A stretch of DNA of 64,000 nt from Burkholderia latens. Lineage in GTDB: Bacteria > Pseudomonadota > Gammaproteobacteria > Burkholderiales > Burkholderiaceae. The DNA is taken from positions 62,001-126,000 of the forward strand of contig NZ_CP013435.1 of assembly GCF_001718795.1 (NCBI RefSeq), read 5' to 3'. Position numbers and translations under genes: made by a program. The notes under the pieces were generated by a model. That model did no database searches. It was not told where the DNA came from and saw only the letters and a program-made list of their open reading frames with translations. Positions 7,703 through 43,302 of the stretch are shown here, piece after piece (the stretch's first letter is position 1; each line of letters starts with the position of its first letter).

Positions 7703-10700
7703 ATGCAACGCATCCTCAACGTGCTGACTCATCCGCGTACGCTCTCGATCGTCGGGATCGTCGCGCTCGCGGCGATCCTGTTCATCGCCGCCGACATGCT
7801 GCAGCTGCCGCTCCTGTGGGCCGCGATCGCGTTCGCGGCCATCCTCGTGATGTGGCTCGGCGTCGCGTTGTGGCGCCGCTGGCGCGTGAAGCGCGCGAAC
7901 CAGCAGCTCGGCCAGGTGCTGGAAGAACAGGCCGAAACGGGCAAGATCGCCGCACCGGCCGCCGCCGCGATCTCGCCGGACGCAAAGACCGCCGATCTCG
8001 ACGTGCTGCGCACGCGCCTGTCGGACGCGGTGAAGACGATCAAGACGTCGAAGATCGGCCAGGTATCGGGTGGCTCGGCGCTGTACGAACTGCCGTGGTA
8101 CATCGTGATCGGCAACCCGGCCGCGGGCAAGAGCAGCGCGGTGCTGAACTCCGGCCTGCAGTTCCCGTTCGCGGACAAGAACAGCGCGGTGATCCACGGC
8201 ATCGGCGGTACGCGCAACTGCGACTGGTTCTTCACGACCGAGGGCATCCTGCTCGATACGGCCGGCCGCTACTCGGTGCACGAGGAAGATCGGGGCGAAT
8301 GGCTGGGCTTTCTCGGCCTGCTGAAACGCTATCGGCCGAAAGCGCCGATCAACGGCATCATCGTCACCGCCAGCATCGCCGAACTCACCGGCAACCGCCC
8401 AGAATTCGCGATCAACCTCGCGAAAAACCTCCGTCAGCGCGTTCAGGAGCTGACCGAAAAGCTCGAAGTGTTCGCGCCGGTCTACGTGATGTTCACGAAG
8501 GCCGACCTGATCACCGGCTTCACCGAATTCTTCAGCAGCAGCGACAAGCACGAATACGACCGCGTGTGGGGCGCCACCCTGCCCTACGAGCCGGACGAGA
8601 AGCGCGACGTCGTCGCACTGTTCGACGAACGCTTCGAGGAACTGTACGAAGGGCTGAAGGAGATCAGCGTCGCGCAGCTGTCGCTGTCGCGCGGCAACCA
8701 GTTGTCGCCGGGCCAGCTGAGCTTCCCGCTCGAATTCTCGACGATCAAGCCGGCGCTGCGTGCGTTCCTCGCAACGCTGTTCGAGAACAACCCGTTCCAG
8801 TACAAGCCGATCTTCCGCGGTTTCTACTTCACCAGCGCACTGCAGGAAGGCGAGACCAACAGCGCCGCCGCACAGCGCATCGCGCACCGCTTCGGCCTCG
8901 ACGCGAGCGCGCTGCCGAAGCCGCACAGCGCATTCTCGAAGAACGGCTTCTTCCTGCGCGACCTCTTCTCGAAGGTGATCTTCGCGGACCGCCAGACCGT
9001 GCGCCAGTTCGCGAGCCCGACCAAGACGCGGCTGCGTTATGCGACCTTCTTCGGCTTCGTCGCGGCGCTCGCGCTCGCACTCGGCGGCTGGACCTGGTCG
9101 ACGATCGGCAACCAGCAGCTCGTCGCGAACGTGCAGGCCGACCTGGACAACGTCACGCGCCTGCAGCAGGGCCGCAACGACCTGCAGTCGCGGCTGCAGG
9201 CGATGGACATTCTCGAAGACCGGATCGAGCAGCTCGAACAGTTCCGCCGCGACAAGCCGATGTCGGTGTCGCTCGGCCTGTATCAGGGCGACCGGCTCGA
9301 ACAGCATCTGCTGACCGAGTACTACAACGGCGTGCGCCAGATCCTGCTCGCGCCGGTCTCGCAGAACCTCGCATCGTTCATGAAGGACGTGAACGCGCAC
9401 CCCGAACAGCTCGTGCCGATGACGCGGCCGCCCGAATCGGGCGCGGTGCAGGGCGGCACGATTCCGGTGTCGACGAATCCGCCGGGCGCCGCACCGCCCG
9501 CCGGCGCCGCGCAAGGCGCATCGGCCGCAGCGGCAGGCTCGCCGCAACAGCCGGCCGCACCGCAAGGCGGCCTGTACAGCGACGCTTCGCCGACCAACGT
9601 GCAGGATGCGTACAACGCGCTGAAGACGTACCTGATGCTGTCGGACAAACGTCACGTCGAACAGGCGCACCTGACCGACCAGCTCGCACGCTTCTGGCGC
9701 GGCTGGCTCGAGACGAATCGCGGCAACATGCCGCGCGACGAGATGATCAAGAGCGCCGAACGGATGATCTCGTTCTATCTGTCGCGCGTGAACGACAACG
9801 ACTGGCCGATGATCGATGCGAACCTCGCGCTCGTCGACCAGACCCGCGAAAACCTGCGTCGCGTCGTGCGCGGGATGCCGGCCCGCCAGCGGGTCTATGA
9901 GGAAATCAAGGCGCGCGCGTCGACCCGCTTCGCGCCGATGACCATCGCGCGCATCGTCGGCGACGGCAACCAGGGGCTGATTGCCGGCAGCTACGCCATT
10001 CCGGGCACGTTCACGCGCGAAGCGTGGTTCGACTACGTGCAGCCGGCGATCCGCGACGCTGCGACCAAGGAACTGCAGGCGAAGGACTGGGTGCTGAACA
10101 CGTCGACGCAGGACGACCTGACGCTGGAAGGCAGCCCCGAGCAGATCCAGAAGACGCTCGTCGGCATGTACAAGACCGAATACGCGCAGCACTGGCAGAA
10201 GTTCATGCAGGGCATCGCGGTGCAGGGCTTCACGAGCTTCGGTCAGGCCGTCGACGGGATGAACCGCCTCGGCGATCCTCAGGATTCGCCGATCCGCAAG
10301 ATTCTGGAGACCGCGTACGACCAGACGTCGTGGGACAACCCGTCGCTCGCGAACGTCGCGATCAAGAAGGCGCAGACGGGCGTGGTGAACTGGGTGAAGC
10401 AGCTGTTCACGCGCTCGCAGGCCGGCCAGATGGCGGCCGCGAACATCGACATCAACGGGAATCCGGCCGAGGTTCCGATGGGTCCGATCGGCCAGGAGTT
10501 CATCGGGCTCGCGCGGATCGTCGCGACGCACGACGGCACGTCGATGCTCAAGGGCTACATGGATTCGCTGTCGAAGGTTCGTACGCGCTTCAACGTGATC
10601 AAGAACCAGGGCGACCCCGGCCCCGGCGCGCGCCAGCTGATGCAGCAGACGCTCGACGGCAACGGCTCGGAGCTCGCCGATTCGCTGAAGTTCGTCGACG

Positions 10701-13722: not shown

Positions 13723-13944
13723 CCACAGCGTGATCGGCTGCGCGATCAGCGTCTTGAGCTCGACGTCGCTTGCGGCGGAAACCAGGTCGAGCACCACGCT
13801 GAAATCGCGGCCGCGCTAGGAGCGCGTCACCGCGCGCCCCGGCACGAGCGCATTATTCTGCAGCGACGGGATGTCCGTCTTCAGCAGGCGATCCTGCTGA
13901 ATCAGGCCGCCGCGAATCGCCTGCGCCAGTTCGGTCACGTTGAT
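13723..13944 (-). pseudogene. vgrG 5' remnant (start codon lost, internal stop)
   Basis: Translating 13944 down to 13723 gives 74 codons that align without gaps at the start to the second vgrG stub of this window (28540-29250): RGGLIQQDRLLKTDIP against RGGLLQQDRLLKLDTP, and LKTLIAQPITLW against LKKLIAQPVTLW. The codon at the position of the start is ATC instead of ATG, and codon 43 (13816-13818) is TAG. Homology ends at the CCCCG repeat. It lies directly after tssA on the same strand, where many T6SS operons carry vgrG. It cannot make a spike protein. Confidence 0.85.
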
Positions 13945-25776: not shown

Positions 25777-27123
25777 ATGAGTTATTCGGCCAAGGTGCTT
25801 TGGGGGGAAGGGCTGTTCCTCCGGCCTCAACACTTCCAGCGGCAGGACGCCTACCACGAGGCTCGCCTGTTCGAATCGATCCAGGCGATCCAGCCGTACA
25901 ACTGGGGCGTGCGTTCGGTGCGCATCGACCGCGATGCGCTAGGCAGCAACGTGCTGCGCGTGGCCGAACTCGCGCTCGTGTTTCCGGACGGCGCGCTGTA
26001 TGCCGCGCCGCAGGCCGACGAGCTGCCGCCGCCGATCGCGCTTGACACGCTGCCCGACGGCATCGGCGAGTTCGTGTTCTACCTTGCGCTGCACCCGCTG
26101 CGCGAGAACGGCACCAACTACAGCGACGATCCGGCCGCCGGCTTCACGACGCGTTTCGTCAGCGAACAGACGAGCGTCGCCGACAACTTCACTGACGCCG
26201 CCGAAGCCGACATCACGTTCCTGAAGACGCAGGTCAAGCTGATCGCGCACAGCGAGCCGCGCGACCAGCTGCTGTCCGTGCCGCTCGTGCGCGTGCGCCG
26301 CACCGCGACGTCCGGCTTCGAAATCGACGACAACTTCGTGCCGCCGTGCCTCGCGATCGAGGCGTCGCCGATTCTTCATCAGCGGCTGCGCCAGCTCGTC
26401 GATGCGCTGCAGGCGAAGGTCAACGCGCTGTATGGTTTTCACCGCGAGCCGTCGAAGAACATCATCGAGTTCCGCTCGGGCGACATCGCGTCGTTCTGGC
26501 TGCTGCACACCGCGAACGCCGCATTCGCCACCCTCGCGCATCTGCACCAGCACGCGGCGCTGCATCCGGAGCGGCTGTTCCAGGAGTTGCTGCGCCTCGC
26601 CGGGCAGTTGATGACGTTCTCGAAGGGCTACACGCTCGCCGACCTGCCCGTGTACCGCCATGATGATCCGGGGCCGAGCTTCGCGCGTCTCGACGGGATG
26701 CTGCGCGAGCTGCTCGACACCGTGATCTCGACGCGCTACTTCGCGATCACGCTCGACGAGGTGCGTCCGTCGTTCCACCTCGGCCGCCTCGACTCCGGCA
26801 AGATCGACGACAAGACCGAGTTCTACCTGGCGGTGTCCGCGGACATGCCGAGCGTCGAGCTTGTCGATGCGGTGCCGGCCCGCTTCAAGGTCGGCGCGCC
26901 CGACGACGTCGACAAGCTCGTGCTGTCGGCGATGCCCGGCGTGCGGCTGTCGTACACGCCGCAGGTGCCGCCCGCGATTCCCGTGCGGCCGGGTGCATGC
27001 TATTTCCAGCTTGATTCGCGCGGCGCGCTGTACGAGCGCATGCTGCAGGCCCAGTCGGCGATGATCTATGCGCCGACTGGCATCAATGACCTGAAATTCG
27101 AACTGATCGCGGTCACATCATGA
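25777..27123 (+). CDS. tssK: Type VI secretion baseplate protein TssK
   Basis: 448 residues, normal for TssK/ImpJ/VasE. The start MSYSAKVLWGEGLFLRPQHF is the strongly conserved N-terminus of the family. TssK connects the cytoplasmic baseplate wedges to TssL/TssM. The stop overlaps the tssL start (ATGA). There is little ribosome-binding signal before the ATG, but conservation fixes the start. Confidence 0.95.
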   Translation: MSYSAKVLWGEGLFLRPQHFQRQDAYHEARLFESIQAIQPYNWGVRSVRIDRDALGSNVLRVAELALVFPDGALYAAPQADELPPPIALDTLPDGIGEFVFYLALHPLRENGTNYSDDPAAGFTTRFVSEQTSVADNFTDAAEADITFLKTQVKLIAHSEPRDQLLSVPLVRVRRTATSGFEIDDNFVPPCLAIEASPILHQRLRQLVDALQAKVNALYGFHREPSKNIIEFRSGDIASFWLLHTANAAFATLAHLHQHAALHPERLFQELLRLAGQLMTFSKGYTLADLPVYRHDDPGPSFARLDGMLRELLDTVISTRYFAITLDEVRPSFHLGRLDSGKIDDKTEFYLAVSADMPSVELVDAVPARFKVGAPDDVDKLVLSAMPGVRLSYTPQVPPAIPVRPGACYFQLDSRGALYERMLQAQSAMIYAPTGINDLKFELIAVTS

Positions 27124-27902
27124 GCTACGCGCCTTCCCTGTTCGGCGACAACACGCCGGCCCCTCTTCATACGCCGGCGTCCACCGATGCCGCGTTCCAG
27201 GCTCGTTCGCTGCTCGATCTGCTGTACGACGGGTTCTTCATGTTGTTCCTGCTCAAGAACGGCCGCGAGCCGGACAGCGCGAGTGAATTCAGCACGAAGA
27301 TCCAGGAATTCCTGTCGGATTTCGAGCGCGGCGCGAAGAAGCTGAACATCGCTGCCGAGGACGTATACGGCGCGAAGTTCGCCTATTGCGCGGCGGTCGA
27401 TGAGATGGTGCTGTCGTCGCAGTTCAAGATCCGCACCGACTGGGAGCGCCGGCCGCTGCAGCTCGTGCTGTTCGGCGAGCAACTCGCGGGCGAGAAGTTC
27501 TTCCAGTATCTCGAGGAATGTCGCGCGCAGGGCGCGGCGCGGTTGCAGTCGCTCGAGGTGTTTCACATGTGCCTGCTGCTCGGCTTCCAGGGCAAGTATC
27601 TGCTCGAGGGGCCGGAGAAGCTCGCGTATCTGACCGCGCGGCTCGGCGACGAGATCGCGCACATGAAGGGCAAGCGCGCCGCGTTTGCGCCGCATTGGCC
27701 GCTGCCGGATCAGATCGCACACCGGCTGAAGCGAGAGGTGCCGGTGTGGGCGATCGGGGCAGTGTTTGCGCTGGTAGCGCTGCTCGGGTACCTCGGGCTC
27801 AATACGTATCTGAAGGACAAGACGTTGCAGGCGTTGGCGCCTTATTCGCAGGTGATCAAGGTGGGCCCGGAGTCGGCGAATTTGACGATTTCGTTGCCTT
27901 GA
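27120..27902 (+). CDS. tssL: Type VI secretion inner-membrane protein TssL (DotU family, short form)
   Basis: 260 residues. The cytoplasmic hook-like domain (about 25-200) includes SLLDLLYDGFFMLFLLKNG and FAYCAAVDEMVL, typical of DotU/TssL. One membrane helix near the C-terminus (VPVWAIGAVFALVALLGYLG, about 204-223) is followed by a short periplasmic end. It lacks the C-terminal OmpA domain of long TssL forms, which agrees with the separate OmpA-like gene at 12632. Coupled to tssK by a 4-bp overlap and followed by a terminator. Confidence 0.94.
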   Translation: MSYAPSLFGDNTPAPLHTPASTDAAFQARSLLDLLYDGFFMLFLLKNGREPDSASEFSTKIQEFLSDFERGAKKLNIAAEDVYGAKFAYCAAVDEMVLSSQFKIRTDWERRPLQLVLFGEQLAGEKFFQYLEECRAQGAARLQSLEVFHMCLLLGFQGKYLLEGPEKLAYLTARLGDEIAHMKGKRAAFAPHWPLPDQIAHRLKREVPVWAIGAVFALVALLGYLGLNTYLKDKTLQALAPYSQVIKVGPESANLTISLP

Positions 27903-27936
27903 GCGCTGCGCTTCGTTCCGACGTTGACGCTGCATG

Positions 27937-27964
27937 AAAAAGGACCGCCTGGCGGTCCTTTTTT
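27937..27964 (+). terminator. Rho-independent terminator after tssL
   Basis: Inverted repeat AAGGACCGCC (27940-27949) / GGCGGTCCTT (27951-27960) preceded by A-rich and followed by T-rich sequence; it ends the tssJKL operon and can also serve the opposing gene at 27988. Confidence 0.9.
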
Positions 27965-27987
27965 GCTGTGGCACGCGACGTGCGTCG

Positions 27988-28305
27988 TCAGAGCAGAATG
28001 AATTCTTCGTTGTCGACGTAGAACACGAATGCGTCGAGCAGTTGCGCGACGCTCGGTTCGTCGACCTGGTCATGCGCGTTGATCACGATGTCTTCGATCG
28101 TCGTGCTGTTCAAGGTGACGCGCCAGCCGGGGTGTGGCGCGGTTGCAGGTGGTGCGGTGCTTTCGGCGCGGGCGGCGGCGTCGGTGAACTCGCCCACTGT
28201 CTCGAGCGTCCACGGCATCGGCGGCATGCAAAGCCATCCGGAGAAGTCTCCCGGGTGTTCGAGGATGTGTTTCAGCGACGCGGTGGTCGGGGTGACGGTC
28301 GACAT
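27988..28305 (-). CDS. Small acidic protein, putative Rhs-toxin immunity protein
   Basis: 105 residues, acidic, no signal peptide or membrane segment. It begins MSTVTPTTASLKHILEHPG and ends FVFYVDNEEFILL. The pattern of an aromatic/Pro-rich PMPWTLET early and YVDNEEF at the end resembles small proteins (I recall DUF7716) that sit beside Rhs-type polymorphic toxins. It lies on the same strand, 100 bp after the broken rhs toxin tip described at 28405-28636, which is where a cognate immunity gene is expected. The frame is intact, so it may persist as an orphan immunity gene. The role is inference from position and family memory. Confidence 0.6.
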   Translation of the reverse strand: MSTVTPTTASLKHILEHPGDFSGWLCMPPMPWTLETVGEFTDAAARAESTAPPATAPHPGWRVTLNSTTIEDIVINAHDQVDEPSVAQLLDAFVFYVDNEEFILL

Positions 28306-28404
28306 GGGTGTTGCGGTGAGAACTGGACTTGAAGCGATGCGTATACGCGATAGTGACGGCGCGCGTCGTGCCTGTGTGGCAGCACTCCGGTCGGCGAGGC
28401 GTGA

Positions 28405-28636
28405 TTATGCCAATTCCGGATGCTCGACGCCGGCTCCGTGGTCAGTGTCGGTCGGTTTCACCTCGTATCGATACTCCAAGCCGGAGGCATTTCTTGACTG
28501 ACCGATTGGTTGTTGGCTCGTCGGAATGCCTGCTTGCCCTCATTGCTTCCCGGCGCGCCGCTCTGGATGTGGGACAACGTGCAAGTCCAAGTGGATCAAT
28601 CCAGCCGGTCGGATTTTCCGCGTACTGAAAGACGTC
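28405..28636 (-). pseudogene. rhs core end plus toxin-tip remnant, frameshifted
   Basis: From 28636 the minus strand reads DVFQYAENPTGWIDPLGL, the hallmark end of an Rhs/YD-repeat core (NPTGWIDPLGL), then ARCPTSRAARREAMR. At about 28537 one extra G shifts the frame, and the next frame continues QAGIPTSQQPIGQSRNASG, then LEYRYEV, up to TAA at 28405-28407. The EAMR-QAGIPTSQQP order is, from memory, typical of the start of Rhs C-terminal toxin domains, so the two frames are one broken gene. Only about 45 toxin-tip codons remain. Its 5' part is gone: the frame is joined to a vgrG stub near 28640, so this is a deletion scar. Confidence 0.8.
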
Positions 28637-29250
28637 GGCGCAAACGCCTGCAGGTTATCGGCGATCACGAGCGTATGCGACTTGCCGCCGTCGGCCTGCT
28701 GCCACGTCGTGTAAAGGCCCTCGCTTTCCATCAGCCGGTGCACGAAATGCCAGTCGGTGTCGTGCTGCCGCGTGTACGAACGGCTCCGCAGCGGCGTCGA
28801 CAGCGCGAAGCGGAATTGTCCGCGCGCCTGCGGATGCTGGTTCAGCACGTCGCTGATGATCTGGTCGACGGACGTGTCGTTCCAGATTCTCTGGTGGCGG
28901 CAGAACTTCAGGAAATGGGTGAAATCGGCGAACGTCAGCTGATAGGTCGTGCGCGCCCCGTCGGCGCCGAGGCGCCGCGCGGTGTGCACGTAGCCGTTCA
29001 CTGGGCGGTAGCTGCGATCGCCCTGCTGAATCCACAACGTGACCGGCTGCGCGATCAGCTTTTTGAGCTCCAGTTGGACGTCGGTCGACAGCACGTCGAG
29101 CGTGAATTCGTACGCTCGCCCGATGCGCGAGCGGCCGACTGCGCGCTGTACGGTCAGCACGTTCGCGCCCAACGGGGTGTCGAGCTTCAACAGCCGGTCC
29201 TGCTGAAGCAACCCGCCGCGCAATGCGGCAATTGTGTTCTGCATGTTCAT
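28540..29250 (-). pseudogene. vgrG 5' stub fused out of frame to an rhs remnant
   Basis: Start at 29250 (MNMQNTIAALRGGLLQQDRL). Residues 1 to about 204 are the gp27-like N-terminal domain of VgrG, with ARRLGADGARTTYQLTFADF and DTDWHFVHRLMESEGLYTTW in the right order. After SHTLVIADNLQAF the sequence stops looking like VgrG; the next codons are an out-of-frame reading of the rhs core end, and the frame stops at 28540. A working VgrG has about 600-1000 residues including the gp5 needle, so this 236-residue product would lack the spike. It lies convergent to tssL. Confidence 0.85.
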
Positions 29251-29585
29251 GGCTACGGCCTTTTCTTCTTTTGACGCGCCCTCGGATGGCGCGGTGAGCG
29301 ATTTCGCTCGCGCGGTTTTACAGACAAATTACTGCGTGAATCGGAAAAACGACCTGGTTTAAAAGAGTATTTTTAAGCGTATGCCGAACAAGCGGTGGAA
29401 CACACGGGCGCACATTCATCGCCTTCGCGCAGCTTGCGCGGCCTCCGCCGGGAATCAATTGCAATCAGGGCCAATTCGACTTCCGGCGCGGCGCGGTTGC
29501 GAGTAGTGTCTACGTGCCCGCATTCCGGCCCGGGCGCGCTGATGCCCGGCGCCCAAACACCACACTGAACCACTGGAGATCCACG
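29251..29585. other. Intergenic region, divergent from vgrG stub to binding-protein gene
   Basis: 335 bp without a gene. AT-richer in 29315-29385; a GC inverted repeat (GCCCGGGCG...GCCCGGCGCC) lies near 29527-29552 before the ribosome site of the next gene. No recognisable protein remnant was found. Confidence 0.4.
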
Positions 29586-30386
29586 ATGAAACGTTCGAAG
29601 TTCCTGCTGACGGGCCTGCTGCTCGCGTCGGCTCTCGGTTTTACGGCCGTCGCCGCGCACGCGGAAGACTTGCTTGACTCGGTGAAAAAAGCCGGCGTGC
29701 TGCGCGTCGGTCTCGAAGGCACGTATCCGCCGTTCAACTCGCGCGGCACGTCAGGTCAGCTCGAGGGCTTCGATGTCGACGTCGCGAATGCGGTGGCCGG
29801 CAAGCTCGGTGTGAAGACGCAGTTCGTGCCGACCGAGTGGAGCGGCATCATCGCGGGGTTGCAAGCCGGCAAGTTCGACGTGATCGTCAACCAGGTGACG
29901 ATCACGCCGCAACGCAAGGAGGCGCTCGACTTCAGCGAGCCGTACACGTATTCGGCCGCGCAGCTGATTCAGCGCAAGGACGACACGCGCAACTTCAAGT
30001 CGCTCGAGGACTTCAAGGGGAAGAAGCTCGGCGTGACGCTCGGCACCAACTACGACCAGATGGCGCGCAGCGTGCCGGGCATCGAGGTGCAGACGTATCC
30101 GGGCGCACCGGAAAAACTGCGTGATCTCGCCGCGGGCCGGATCGAAGCGACGCTCGACGATCGCCTGATGCTGCCGTACATGATCAAGACGTCGAACCTG
30201 CCGCTGCGCTCGGGTGCGGTGCTGAACGGCGGCAAGCAGGAGATGGCGATCCCGTTCCGCAAAGGCAATCCGAAGTTCGAGAAGGCGATCAACGATGCGC
30301 TCGATTCACTCCGCAAGGAAGGCACGCTGAAAAAGATCTCGATGCACTGGTTCGGAAGCGACGTGACCGTGCCGGTCGCGCAGTAA
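29586..30386 (+). CDS. Periplasmic amino-acid-binding protein (ABC transporter family 3)
   Basis: 266 residues. A Sec signal peptide (1-26, cut after AHA) is followed by the type 2 periplasmic binding fold: VLRVGLEGTYPPFN near 37-50, GFDVDVANAVAGKLG near 60-75 and KLGVTLGTNYDQ near 150, all typical of polar amino-acid / cystine-binding proteins. GGAG lies 8 nt before the ATG at 29586; the frame is open 24 codons upstream without a signal peptide. No permease or ATPase gene adjoins, so it is an orphan binding protein that must share a transporter encoded elsewhere. Ligand not determinable here; cystine or another polar amino acid is most likely. Confidence 0.9.
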   Translation: MKRSKFLLTGLLLASALGFTAVAAHAEDLLDSVKKAGVLRVGLEGTYPPFNSRGTSGQLEGFDVDVANAVAGKLGVKTQFVPTEWSGIIAGLQAGKFDVIVNQVTITPQRKEALDFSEPYTYSAAQLIQRKDDTRNFKSLEDFKGKKLGVTLGTNYDQMARSVPGIEVQTYPGAPEKLRDLAAGRIEATLDDRLMLPYMIKTSNLPLRSGAVLNGGKQEMAIPFRKGNPKFEKAINDALDSLRKEGTLKKISMHWFGSDVTVPVAQ

Positions 30387-35381: not shown

Positions 35382-35400
35382 GCTTTTCGGTGTTTGGTGC

Positions 35401-35441
35401 GGCTGCAGGACTCGAACCCGCCACCTGATGATTACAAATCA
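35401..35441. repeat. Distal attachment-site repeat (partial tRNA-Thr 3' end)
   Basis: 41 bp identical to 43234-43274. Homology goes on for a few more bases outward (TTGGTGC) with a single-base deletion. It covers the T-arm and anticodon-loop region of the tRNA, and beyond it the tRNA match stops. Confidence 0.93.
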
Positions 35442-35616: not shown

Positions 35617-36990
35617 GTGGCAACGGTGGCGAAGGTCAATTTCACGGCAGGACGCGTAGAAGCGCATAAGTGCCCTGCCGGCAAATCGCAGGCATTCATC
35701 TGGGACAGCAAGGCTCCCGGTCTCGGCTTGCGTGCAACCAAGGCAGGGGCGAAGGCGTACATCTTCCAGGCGAAGCTCAACGGGGACGCCGTCCGCGTCA
35801 CGATAGGCGACCCCAGAAGCTGGAACATCGACCAGGCACAGGAGGAAGCGCGCCGTCTGCAGCGCCTCGTCGACGAAGGCATCGACCCGCGCGAACACGC
35901 TGCCGAGCAGCGTGCCGTGGTAGCGACGCGAAAAGCCGAAGCCGAGCGCAAAAACGTGACCTTTGCCGACGCATGGGCGGCTTACCTGATCGAGCTTGAA
36001 ACGAAACCCTCCCCGAAAACAAAGCGCCCGCGCAGCGCGCAGTACATCGAGGACCACCGCAAATTGGCCGCCCCCGGCGGCGAGAAAAAGAAGCGAGGAA
36101 AGGGGCTGACCAGCCAAGGCCCGCTGTATCCGCTCATGCCGCGGAAGCTGTCCGACATGACTGGCGACACGATCGCCAGTTGGATGGAAGACGAGGTTGC
36201 CGAACGCCCGACCAGCATCGCCTACGCCTACCGCATGTTTAAGGCCTTTGCCGGTTGGTGCGAGGGTCAAACGAAACTCAAGGGATTGTTGCCGGACGAC
36301 TGCCATTCGTCTCCCAAGGTCACGGCCCTGCTGCCCAGTACGAAAACGCCCGAAGGCGACTGCCTGGAGCGCGAGCAATTGCCGGCATGGTTTAAGGCAG
36401 TACGCGCGCTACCCAACCCCGTGGCGTCCGCCTACCTGCAAGGGGTTCTCATCACCGGCCCACGCCGCGAAGAACTCGCGGAACTGCGGTGGGAAAACGT
36501 CGATTTGCGCTGGAACAAGATAAAGCTGCGCGACAAGATCGAAGGCACCCGCACCATCCCGCTGACGCCCTATTTCCGATCGCTCCTGCTGGAACTGAAG
36601 CGCATCAACGAGACACCGCCGAGCGTCGCACAACGGAAGGACATGACAGCGGCAGGCACGCCCTGGCAACCTTCGCCATGGGTATTCCCGAGCAGCGCAT
36701 CGGAAAGCGGCCATATCGAGGAACCGCGCTATGCCCACGGGACCGCCATCGAACAAGCGGGCCTACCCCACGTGACGCTACAGGGTTTGCGCCGTTCTTT
36801 CGGCACACTGGCCGAGTGGCTGGAGGTTCCCGCCGGTGTCGTGGCTCAAATTCAGGGACACAAGCCTAGCGCACTGGCCGAGAAGCACTACCGCCGACGA
36901 CCGCTCGACTTGCTACGCCAGTGGCACACCCGCATCGAGGCGTGGATGCTGGAGCAGGCTGGCATCGAATTCGATTCAACCCAATCTTGA
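35617..36990 (+). CDS. int: Tyrosine recombinase / phage-type integrase
   Basis: About 457 residues. The N-terminus carries the DUF4102-like arm-binding domain (residues 5-90, FTAGRVEAHKCPAG...APGLGLRATKAG) found in island integrases. The catalytic domain (about 240-440) holds ITGPRREELAELRW (first Arg), HVTLQGLRRSFGTLAE (His and second Arg), IQGHKPSALAEKHY (second His and the nucleophile Tyr). It should cut and join at the tRNA-Thr repeats. The start is GTG; 35617 is given, but GTG 35626 has a better AGGGTGG ribosome site 5 nt upstream. It reads into the element, away from the distal repeat. Confidence 0.92.
   Translation: MATVAKVNFTAGRVEAHKCPAGKSQAFIWDSKAPGLGLRATKAGAKAYIFQAKLNGDAVRVTIGDPRSWNIDQAQEEARRLQRLVDEGIDPREHAAEQRAVVATRKAEAERKNVTFADAWAAYLIELETKPSPKTKRPRSAQYIEDHRKLAAPGGEKKKRGKGLTSQGPLYPLMPRKLSDMTGDTIASWMEDEVAERPTSIAYAYRMFKAFAGWCEGQTKLKGLLPDDCHSSPKVTALLPSTKTPEGDCLEREQLPAWFKAVRALPNPVASAYLQGVLITGPRREELAELRWENVDLRWNKIKLRDKIEGTRTIPLTPYFRSLLLELKRINETPPSVAQRKDMTAAGTPWQPSPWVFPSSASESGHIEEPRYAHGTAIEQAGLPHVTLQGLRRSFGTLAEWLEVPAGVVAQIQGHKPSALAEKHYRRRPLDLLRQWHTRIEAWMLEQAGIEFDSTQS

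Positions 36991-43226: not shown

Positions 43227-43302
<76 letters not shown>

What the first reader, a model, noticed from the sequence alone, without database searches (positions are those of the whole stretch)
28405..29250. A deletion fused a vgrG head to an Rhs toxin tip
The minus-strand frame from 29250 is VgrG up to about residue 204. Across a junction near 28640 a different frame reads VFQYAENPTGWIDPLGL, the conserved end of an Rhs core, followed by the start of a C-terminal toxin domain that a single extra G (about 28537) splits into two frames. So a vgrG-rhs-immunity module once lay downstream of tssL and a deletion of several kilobases removed the VgrG needle and nearly all the Rhs shell. 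What is left is a fossil of this strain's former T6SS effector.
Basis: partly seen in the sequence, partly recalled or inferred. Interest (0 to 1): 0.75.

Follow-up and report, generated by a model that had tools for sequence, protein, structure and literature searches.

The report
Broken T6SS spike-toxin genes, immunity kept
This is the wreck of a bacterial weapon: most of a spike gene and its toxin gene next to a type VI secretion cluster were deleted, while a gene that probably protects against such toxins stayed intact, an ordinary decay event with a telling survivor.

Summary
On the minus strand a vgrG start (29250-28636) runs out of frame into an Rhs-core end and toxin start (28635 to about 28460). 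In the 24 best-matching Burkholderia genomes vgrG homology ends at the same window base. The nearest held genome (G001, probably B. latens) keeps intact vgrG, rhs and toxin cassettes there; the two fused pieces lie 8.65 kb apart. Corrections: a second join lies at 28455-28459, where the rest of the toxin is missing; the tip's best match in G001 is an orphan cassette; the join is not private, as a protein labelled B. cenocepacia has the same fused tail. The next gene (28305-27988), DUF7716, is intact; a Salmonella homologue is a tested immunity protein against a WHH nuclease (PMC13224477). DUF7716 occurs at this site in 46 of 46 genomes with both flanks on one contig, 16 of them without a full vgrG. 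The window also holds a second truncated vgrG (13944-13723); relatives that lack the first lack the second (0 of 16 have it, against 23 of 30). Ordinary effector decay, probably with orphan immunity kept.

The parts
28636..29250 (-). vgrG head remnant (205 codons of a gene of 1063 codons in G001)
   Evidence: Pfam Phage_GPD 1.2e-52; 93% DNA identity to G001, homology ends at 28636 in the 24 best genomes
28540..29250 (-). 236-aa fused ORF: VgrG head plus an out-of-frame tail
   Evidence: same ORF, 232 of 236 residues identical, in P0001
28635..28636 (-). join 1: vgrG | Rhs core end
   Evidence: a 24-mer across it has no exact match in genome contigs
28460..28635 (-). Rhs core end and first codons of a C-terminal toxin, frame broken inside
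   Evidence: 84% to L031:15652-15819; 79% to the main rhs end of G088; pieces read apart
28455..28459 (-). join 2: toxin start | upstream flank of DUF7716; about 2.3 kb present in G001 is absent here
28404..28412 (-). TGGCATAAT, conserved promoter-like block upstream of DUF7716
   Evidence: motif in 35 of 47 upstream windows (46 genomes and the window), out of 41 hits in all these regions together (positions); one search found no two-hexamer sigma-70 promoter in 27850-29550
27988..28305 (-). intact DUF7716 gene (105 aa), probable orphan immunity gene
   Evidence: PF24832 1.7e-25; 46 of 46 relatives; Salmonella homologue tested as immunity (PMC13224477, passages)
27120..27902 (+). tssL, end of the T6SS-1 cluster (landmark)
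   Evidence: PF09850 2.2e-59
29514..30386 (+). solute-binding protein gene, other flank (landmark)
   Evidence: PF00497 3.6e-45; on the same contig as tssL and within 25 kb in 46 genomes
13723..13944 (-). second, different vgrG remnant (about 74 codons, in-frame stop) after tssA
   Evidence: 55% to the G001 tssL-side VgrG; sequence with stop; full-length vgrG there in 8 of 11 fetched relatives, homology ends at 13723 in those 8

Best explanation
The locus is a non-functional remnant of a T6SS effector module (vgrG - rhs - toxin cassettes - immunity genes) at the tssL end of the T6SS-1 cluster. One deletion by illegitimate recombination removed the rest of vgrG and the Rhs shell and joined the vgrG head, out of frame, to an Rhs-core/toxin start. 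A second deletion removed the rest of the toxin and the genes up to the flank of DUF7716. Order and number of steps are inferred. The DUF7716 gene, which has its own conserved upstream block, was kept and probably still works as an orphan immunity gene against WHH-type (HNH) nuclease effectors of neighbouring bacteria. Shown: both joins, the broken frames, intact modules in relatives, the intact DUF7716 and its presence in all 46 syntenic relatives, and the same fusion in another record. Inferred: loss of function, immunity function, and selection for keeping immunity.
For: Homology breaks at one base in 24 genomes. G001 has intact vgrG, rhs and orphan cassettes, with the two pieces 8.65 kb apart. 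The Rhs part is out of frame with vgrG. Full vgrG in 30 of 46 relatives, none in 15, a short remnant in one. The same fused ORF occurs in P0001. The head carries 11 residues found in none of 30 intact heads, while those heads have 0-7 private residues each (median 1); at six of the 11 sites all 30 agree. Changes on the window lineage are 14 nonsynonymous to 16 synonymous, against 131:363 pooled over 30 intact heads, Fisher p 0.021. DUF7716: 46 of 46, frames of 99-108 aa; median pairwise dN/dS 0.23 among genomes without a full vgrG (window included) and 0.26 among those with it. In G001 a WHH cassette (Pfam 2e-7) is followed directly by another DUF7716 gene. The DUF7716-WHH pair in Salmonella was tested (PMC13224477, passages). 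Protection by an orphan Rhs immunity protein was shown in Serratia (PMC10539506, passages).
Against: Against the sister lineage alone (G001, 4:9) the excess of nonsynonymous change is not significant (p 0.50), and the window is a longer branch than most, which raises private counts. The fused ORF is 98% conserved in P0001, so decay since the join is slight; 10 of the 11 private residues are shared with it. The window's own genome is not held, so other vgrG copies, RNA and polymorphism could not be checked. The true parent of the Rhs piece was not found: one match with 3 mismatches to a 26-base pattern, in 1 of 65 genomes. No classic promoter was found by the scan. 12 of 47 upstream windows lack the conserved motif. 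DUF7716 in Burkholderia is untested at the bench as far as the searches here show.
Confidence: 0.9

Rival explanations
1. The vgrG head was not fused to the main Rhs gene in one step. An orphan toxin cassette, already separated from rhs, became the downstream partner, so the fusion records the loss of a whole module plus part of its cassette array.
For: In G001 the best match of the tip is an orphan cassette with its own short Rhs-core start, downstream of an intact rhs with a different (HNH) tip.
Against: In G088 the same toxin family sits at the end of the main rhs gene, 79%. Only about 55 bases of Rhs core are left in the window, too few to tell.
Confidence: 0.45
2. The 236-aa truncated VgrG is a functional protein, for example a partial hub or a regulator, and the ORF is kept by selection.
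For: The same ORF, 98% identical, exists in another record; its cluster at 90% identity has 20 member sequences, of which only the representative was seen. Pairwise dN/dS of the head is still well below 1.
Against: It lacks the second part of the GPD domain and the needle. The tail is an out-of-frame reading of Rhs DNA. It has the most private residues of 31 heads.
Confidence: 0.04
3. The join is a sequencing or assembly artefact.
For: The own assembly and reads are not available.
Against: P0001, a record with four different residues, has the same join to the last residue.
Confidence: 0.01
4. DUF7716 at tssL is not an immunity gene here but a T6SS-1 accessory gene that merely shares a fold with immunity proteins.
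For: It is present on the tssL side in 46 of 46 syntenic genomes whatever the effector content and has a conserved upstream block of its own in 35 of 47, unusual for a disposable immunity gene.
Against: Family members directly follow WHH toxins in G001 and in Salmonella. It evolves fast: 71% protein identity to G001, where the DNA of the tssL end is 95% identical. The 10 genus genomes that have tssL without this synteny have no DUF7716 near tssL.
Confidence: 0.2

Closest known systems
VgrG/TssI (TIGR03361, PF05954) and T6SS Rhs effectors with exchangeable C-terminal toxins
   Same: The two ends of the fused stretch derive from these families.
   Different: Here both are truncated and joined out of frame; neither can make its full product.
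Orphan Rhs-CT/immunity cassettes (Salmonella PMC3967940, search listing only; Serratia PMC10539506, passages)
   Same: Relatives carry displaced toxin starts and extra immunity-type genes downstream of rhs.
   Different: The window lost the array and the delivery gene and kept one immunity-type gene.
Orphan immunity gene arrays after effector displacement (Vibrio cholerae, PMC5361080, outline and abstract)
   Same: The immunity gene outlives the effector.
   Different: Here the effector was deleted, and one immunity family stays at one site in all 46 syntenic genomes.
RhsA-HNHc / DUF7716 pair of Salmonella Tennessee SPI-6 (PMC13224477, passages)
   Same: Same Pfam family PF24832; a WHH nuclease is the partner, as in the G001 array.
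   Different: No cognate toxin is left beside the window's copy.
Disrupted tssI BCAL2503 of B. cenocepacia J2315 (PMC6612558, passages)
   Same: A tssI gene broken by a deletion and fused to a neighbour, in the same species complex.
   Different: Other locus; fused to tssF, not to Rhs.

Membership tests
VgrG/TssI | GPD-like hub domain | tested here: met
   PF05954 residues 41-206, profile positions 2-165 of 305, so only the first half
VgrG/TssI | OB domain and beta-needle | tested here: not met
   No such match in the 236-aa ORF; for comparison the intact tssA-side VgrG of G001 shows Phage_base_V, T6SS_Vgr and DUF2345
Rhs effector | YD/RHS repeat shell | tested here: not met
   Only 23 residues of core end match; G001 rhs has 12 RHS_repeat stretches
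Rhs effector | DPLGL core end followed by a variable toxin | tested here: met
   WIDPLGLARC reading and 84% DNA match to a G001 cassette
Rhs effector | Complete toxin domain | tested here: not met
   Match stops at 28460, frame broken before that
DUF7716 immunity family | Full-length PF24832 domain | tested here: met
   Profile 3-101 of 102, E 1.7e-25
DUF7716 immunity family | Cognate WHH/HNH toxin upstream | tested here: not met
   The DNA upstream is the toxin start of another family and the vgrG head; a WHH partner is seen for another copy in G001
DUF7716 immunity family | Neutralises a nuclease | not testable with these tools
   Shown for the Salmonella homologue only (PMC13224477)

The most novel reading that the evidence does not exclude
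In the B. cepacia complex the T6SS-1 cluster loses its resident spike modules as a set (the tssL-side vgrG-rhs and the tssA-side vgrG together), while a fixed, independently transcribed DUF7716 immunity gene is kept as a permanent guard against WHH nucleases of kin. The window is caught part-way, with fossils of both spikes and the guard intact.
Probability: 0.4. Interest if true: 0.5.

Novelty: new member of a known kind. Interest (0 to 1): 0.36.

Why it matters
It shows the loss of a weapon at one site: the spike and toxin go, the shield stays. Because intact, remnant and empty states of the same site exist in 46 related genomes, the idea that orphan immunity is kept by selection after the toxin is lost can be tested here. 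It also bears on the published remark that most B. cepacia complex species lack tssI in the T6SS-1 cluster (PMC6612558, section 3.1): of the 46 genomes here 30 have a full vgrG between tssL and the next flank gene, though that paper may draw the cluster's border at tssL.

Tried and rejected
Looked for the exact join in genome contigs (one genome per species, contigs from 3,000 bases; genomes very near the window may be left out): 0 exact matches to a 24-base pattern. Looked for the Rhs parent with up to 3 mismatches in 65 genus genomes: 1 match, 3 mismatches, G027. Pfam gave no significant toxin family for the toxin start (Ntox47 at 0.17) nor for the G001 cassette (Ntox47 1.7e-4 over residues 6-44, under its cut-off; NCBIfam only Rhs_assc_core, under its cut-off), so the toxin's activity is not named. 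Microhomology at join 1: against G001, G088 and G027 no shared run longer than a few bases is seen by eye, but the true Rhs parent is not held. A sigma-54 reading of the conserved block upstream of DUF7716 was considered (GG-N10-GC fits in some genomes, not in the window, by eye); left open. The scan found 0 promoters and one terminator-like site at 29215, not at the end of DUF7716. Transposons or insertion sequences as agent were not searched for. Of the 120 proteins listed only P0001 covers the whole query; the sequences of five were read.

Full report
What is there. The minus-strand ORF 29250-28540 (236 aa) begins as VgrG: Pfam Phage_GPD over residues 41-206, E 1.2e-52; NCBIfam TssI/VgrG 1.3e-36, below that model's full-length cut-off. 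From 28635 on, the DNA is no longer vgrG. In another frame it reads ADVFQYAENPTGWIDPLGLARCPTS, an Rhs core end and the start of a toxin. The vgrG frame runs through this DNA in the wrong frame and stops at 28540.

The join is sharp. A search of 61 genomes with 29280-28306 gave 37 with a match; in the 24 best, the match ended at query base 645, window 28636, at 85-93% identity. In G001, the nearest held genome, the next piece (28628-28460) matches 8.65 kb further on, at 84%, E 2.65e-45.

The intact state. G001 has vgrG (1063 aa), rhs (1514 aa, 12 RHS-repeat stretches, HNH tip), a DUF4265 gene, a WHH cassette followed directly by a DUF7716 gene, then the orphan cassette that matches the window's tip, two genes without a Pfam match, and another DUF7716 gene beside tssL. 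In G088 the same toxin ends the main rhs gene. So the tip in the window could come from either arrangement.

A second join. The toxin match stops at 28460. From 28454 down to tssL the window is colinear again with G001, G021 and G022, and from 28457 with G031 and G023; in G018, G006, G027 and G003 the flank match ends lower, at 28308-28423. About 2.3 kb that G001 has between these points is missing, with the rest of the toxin.

Not private. Among 120 listed hits of a search of 5.8 billion proteins, P0001 (236 aa, labelled B. cenocepacia, cluster of 20 members) is the only one that covers the whole fused ORF; 232 of 236 residues are identical. Only the cluster's representative was seen.

Decay. 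The window head has 11 residues found in none of 30 intact heads; each intact head has 0-7 private residues, median 1. Window-lineage changes are 14 nonsynonymous to 16 synonymous, against 131:363 pooled over 30 intact heads (p 0.021), but not different from the sister G001 alone, 4:9 (p 0.50). Relaxed selection is thus likely, not proven; 10 of the 11 private residues are shared with P0001, so most arose before the two records parted.

The site in relatives. Of 65 genus genomes, 62 have tssL. In 46 of these tssL and the solute-binding protein gene stand on one contig within 25 kb; in 6 they are on two contigs; 10 lack this synteny. Of the 46: full vgrG in 30, a short remnant in one (G062), none in 15; Rhs of at least 1300 aligned residues in 29; DUF7716 in 46. 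On a tssL+SBP tree the vgrG state needs 10 changes, at least 6 forced by well-supported branches, so it was lost (or gained) repeatedly; that these are losses is inferred from the remnants.

DUF7716. The window copy is intact (105 aa). A family member is a tested immunity protein of a WHH nuclease in S. Tennessee (PMC13224477, passages). Pairwise dN/dS is 0.23 (median, 134 pairs) among genomes without a full vgrG (window included) and 0.26 (428 pairs) among those with it, pairs with extreme synonymous distance left out; these are rough. The motif TGN[CT]ATAAT stands upstream in 35 of 47 regions, while all regions together hold 41 hits on both strands (places). This suggests an own promoter, but the two-hexamer scan found none. 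The only paper found for DUF7716 or PF24832 is the Salmonella one.

A second fossil. At 13944-13723 (-), after tssA, the window holds about 74 codons of the start of a different vgrG, with an in-frame stop. In 8 of 11 fetched relatives a full-length vgrG stands there and 3 (G062, G002, G004) lack it. A match of the whole query down to 13723 occurs in 22 of the 30 genomes with a full tssL-side vgrG and in 0 of the 16 without. Direct comparison of 4 kb behind tssA in the 21 genomes not yet seen and without such a match found a vgrG in one, G020, and none in the 13 others that lack the tssL-side vgrG. The table is then 23 of 30 against 0 of 16, Fisher 4.9e-7 (8.2e-7 with 22). Corrected for kinship, with the 22: of 6 independent pairs on supported branches about 5 go the same way and none the other way, p about 0.06. 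So the two losses go together; as independent events the support is only suggestive.

The rest of the T6SS-1 cluster. Pfam matches that fit TssF, TssE, Hcp, TssC, TssB, TssJ, TssK, TssL, TssM, ClpV and TssA were found (the Tss names for some are my reading of the domains). No TssG match came from the one frame tested. PMC6612558 (section 3.1 read) reports that most B. cepacia complex species have tssI elsewhere in the genome, so the cluster may still work with other VgrGs; not testable here because the own genome is not held.

Verdict. It is a common kind of event, shared with at least one other record, and its more interesting side is what was kept. Literature searches (listings seen, open-licence PMC papers only) listed no paper whose title or abstract start describes this join.

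Noticed in passing
window 13723-13944 (-): Second vgrG remnant after tssA, with an in-frame stop; G001 keeps a full vgrG (893 aa) there, followed by three ORFs without a Pfam match.
   Followed up: partly
window 28404-28412 (-): TTGGCATAATCACG block upstream of DUF7716 conserved across most relatives: extended -10-like, a sigma-54 reading not excluded.
   Followed up: partly
window 35617-36987 (+) and 35393-35441: Tyrosine integrase next to a block of about 49 bases that is 94-98% identical in several relatives at another distance from the T6SS flank; no tRNA found there (the only one in the window is tRNA-Thr at 43227). Possible island edge.
   Followed up: no
L041 (B. ambifaria RZ2MS16) 9693-9820: A separate, smaller vgrG remnant (128 bases, 80%) at the same site.
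   Followed up: partly
L031:14801-15508: WHH nuclease cassette followed directly by a DUF7716 gene, a Burkholderia counterpart of the Salmonella pair.
   Followed up: partly
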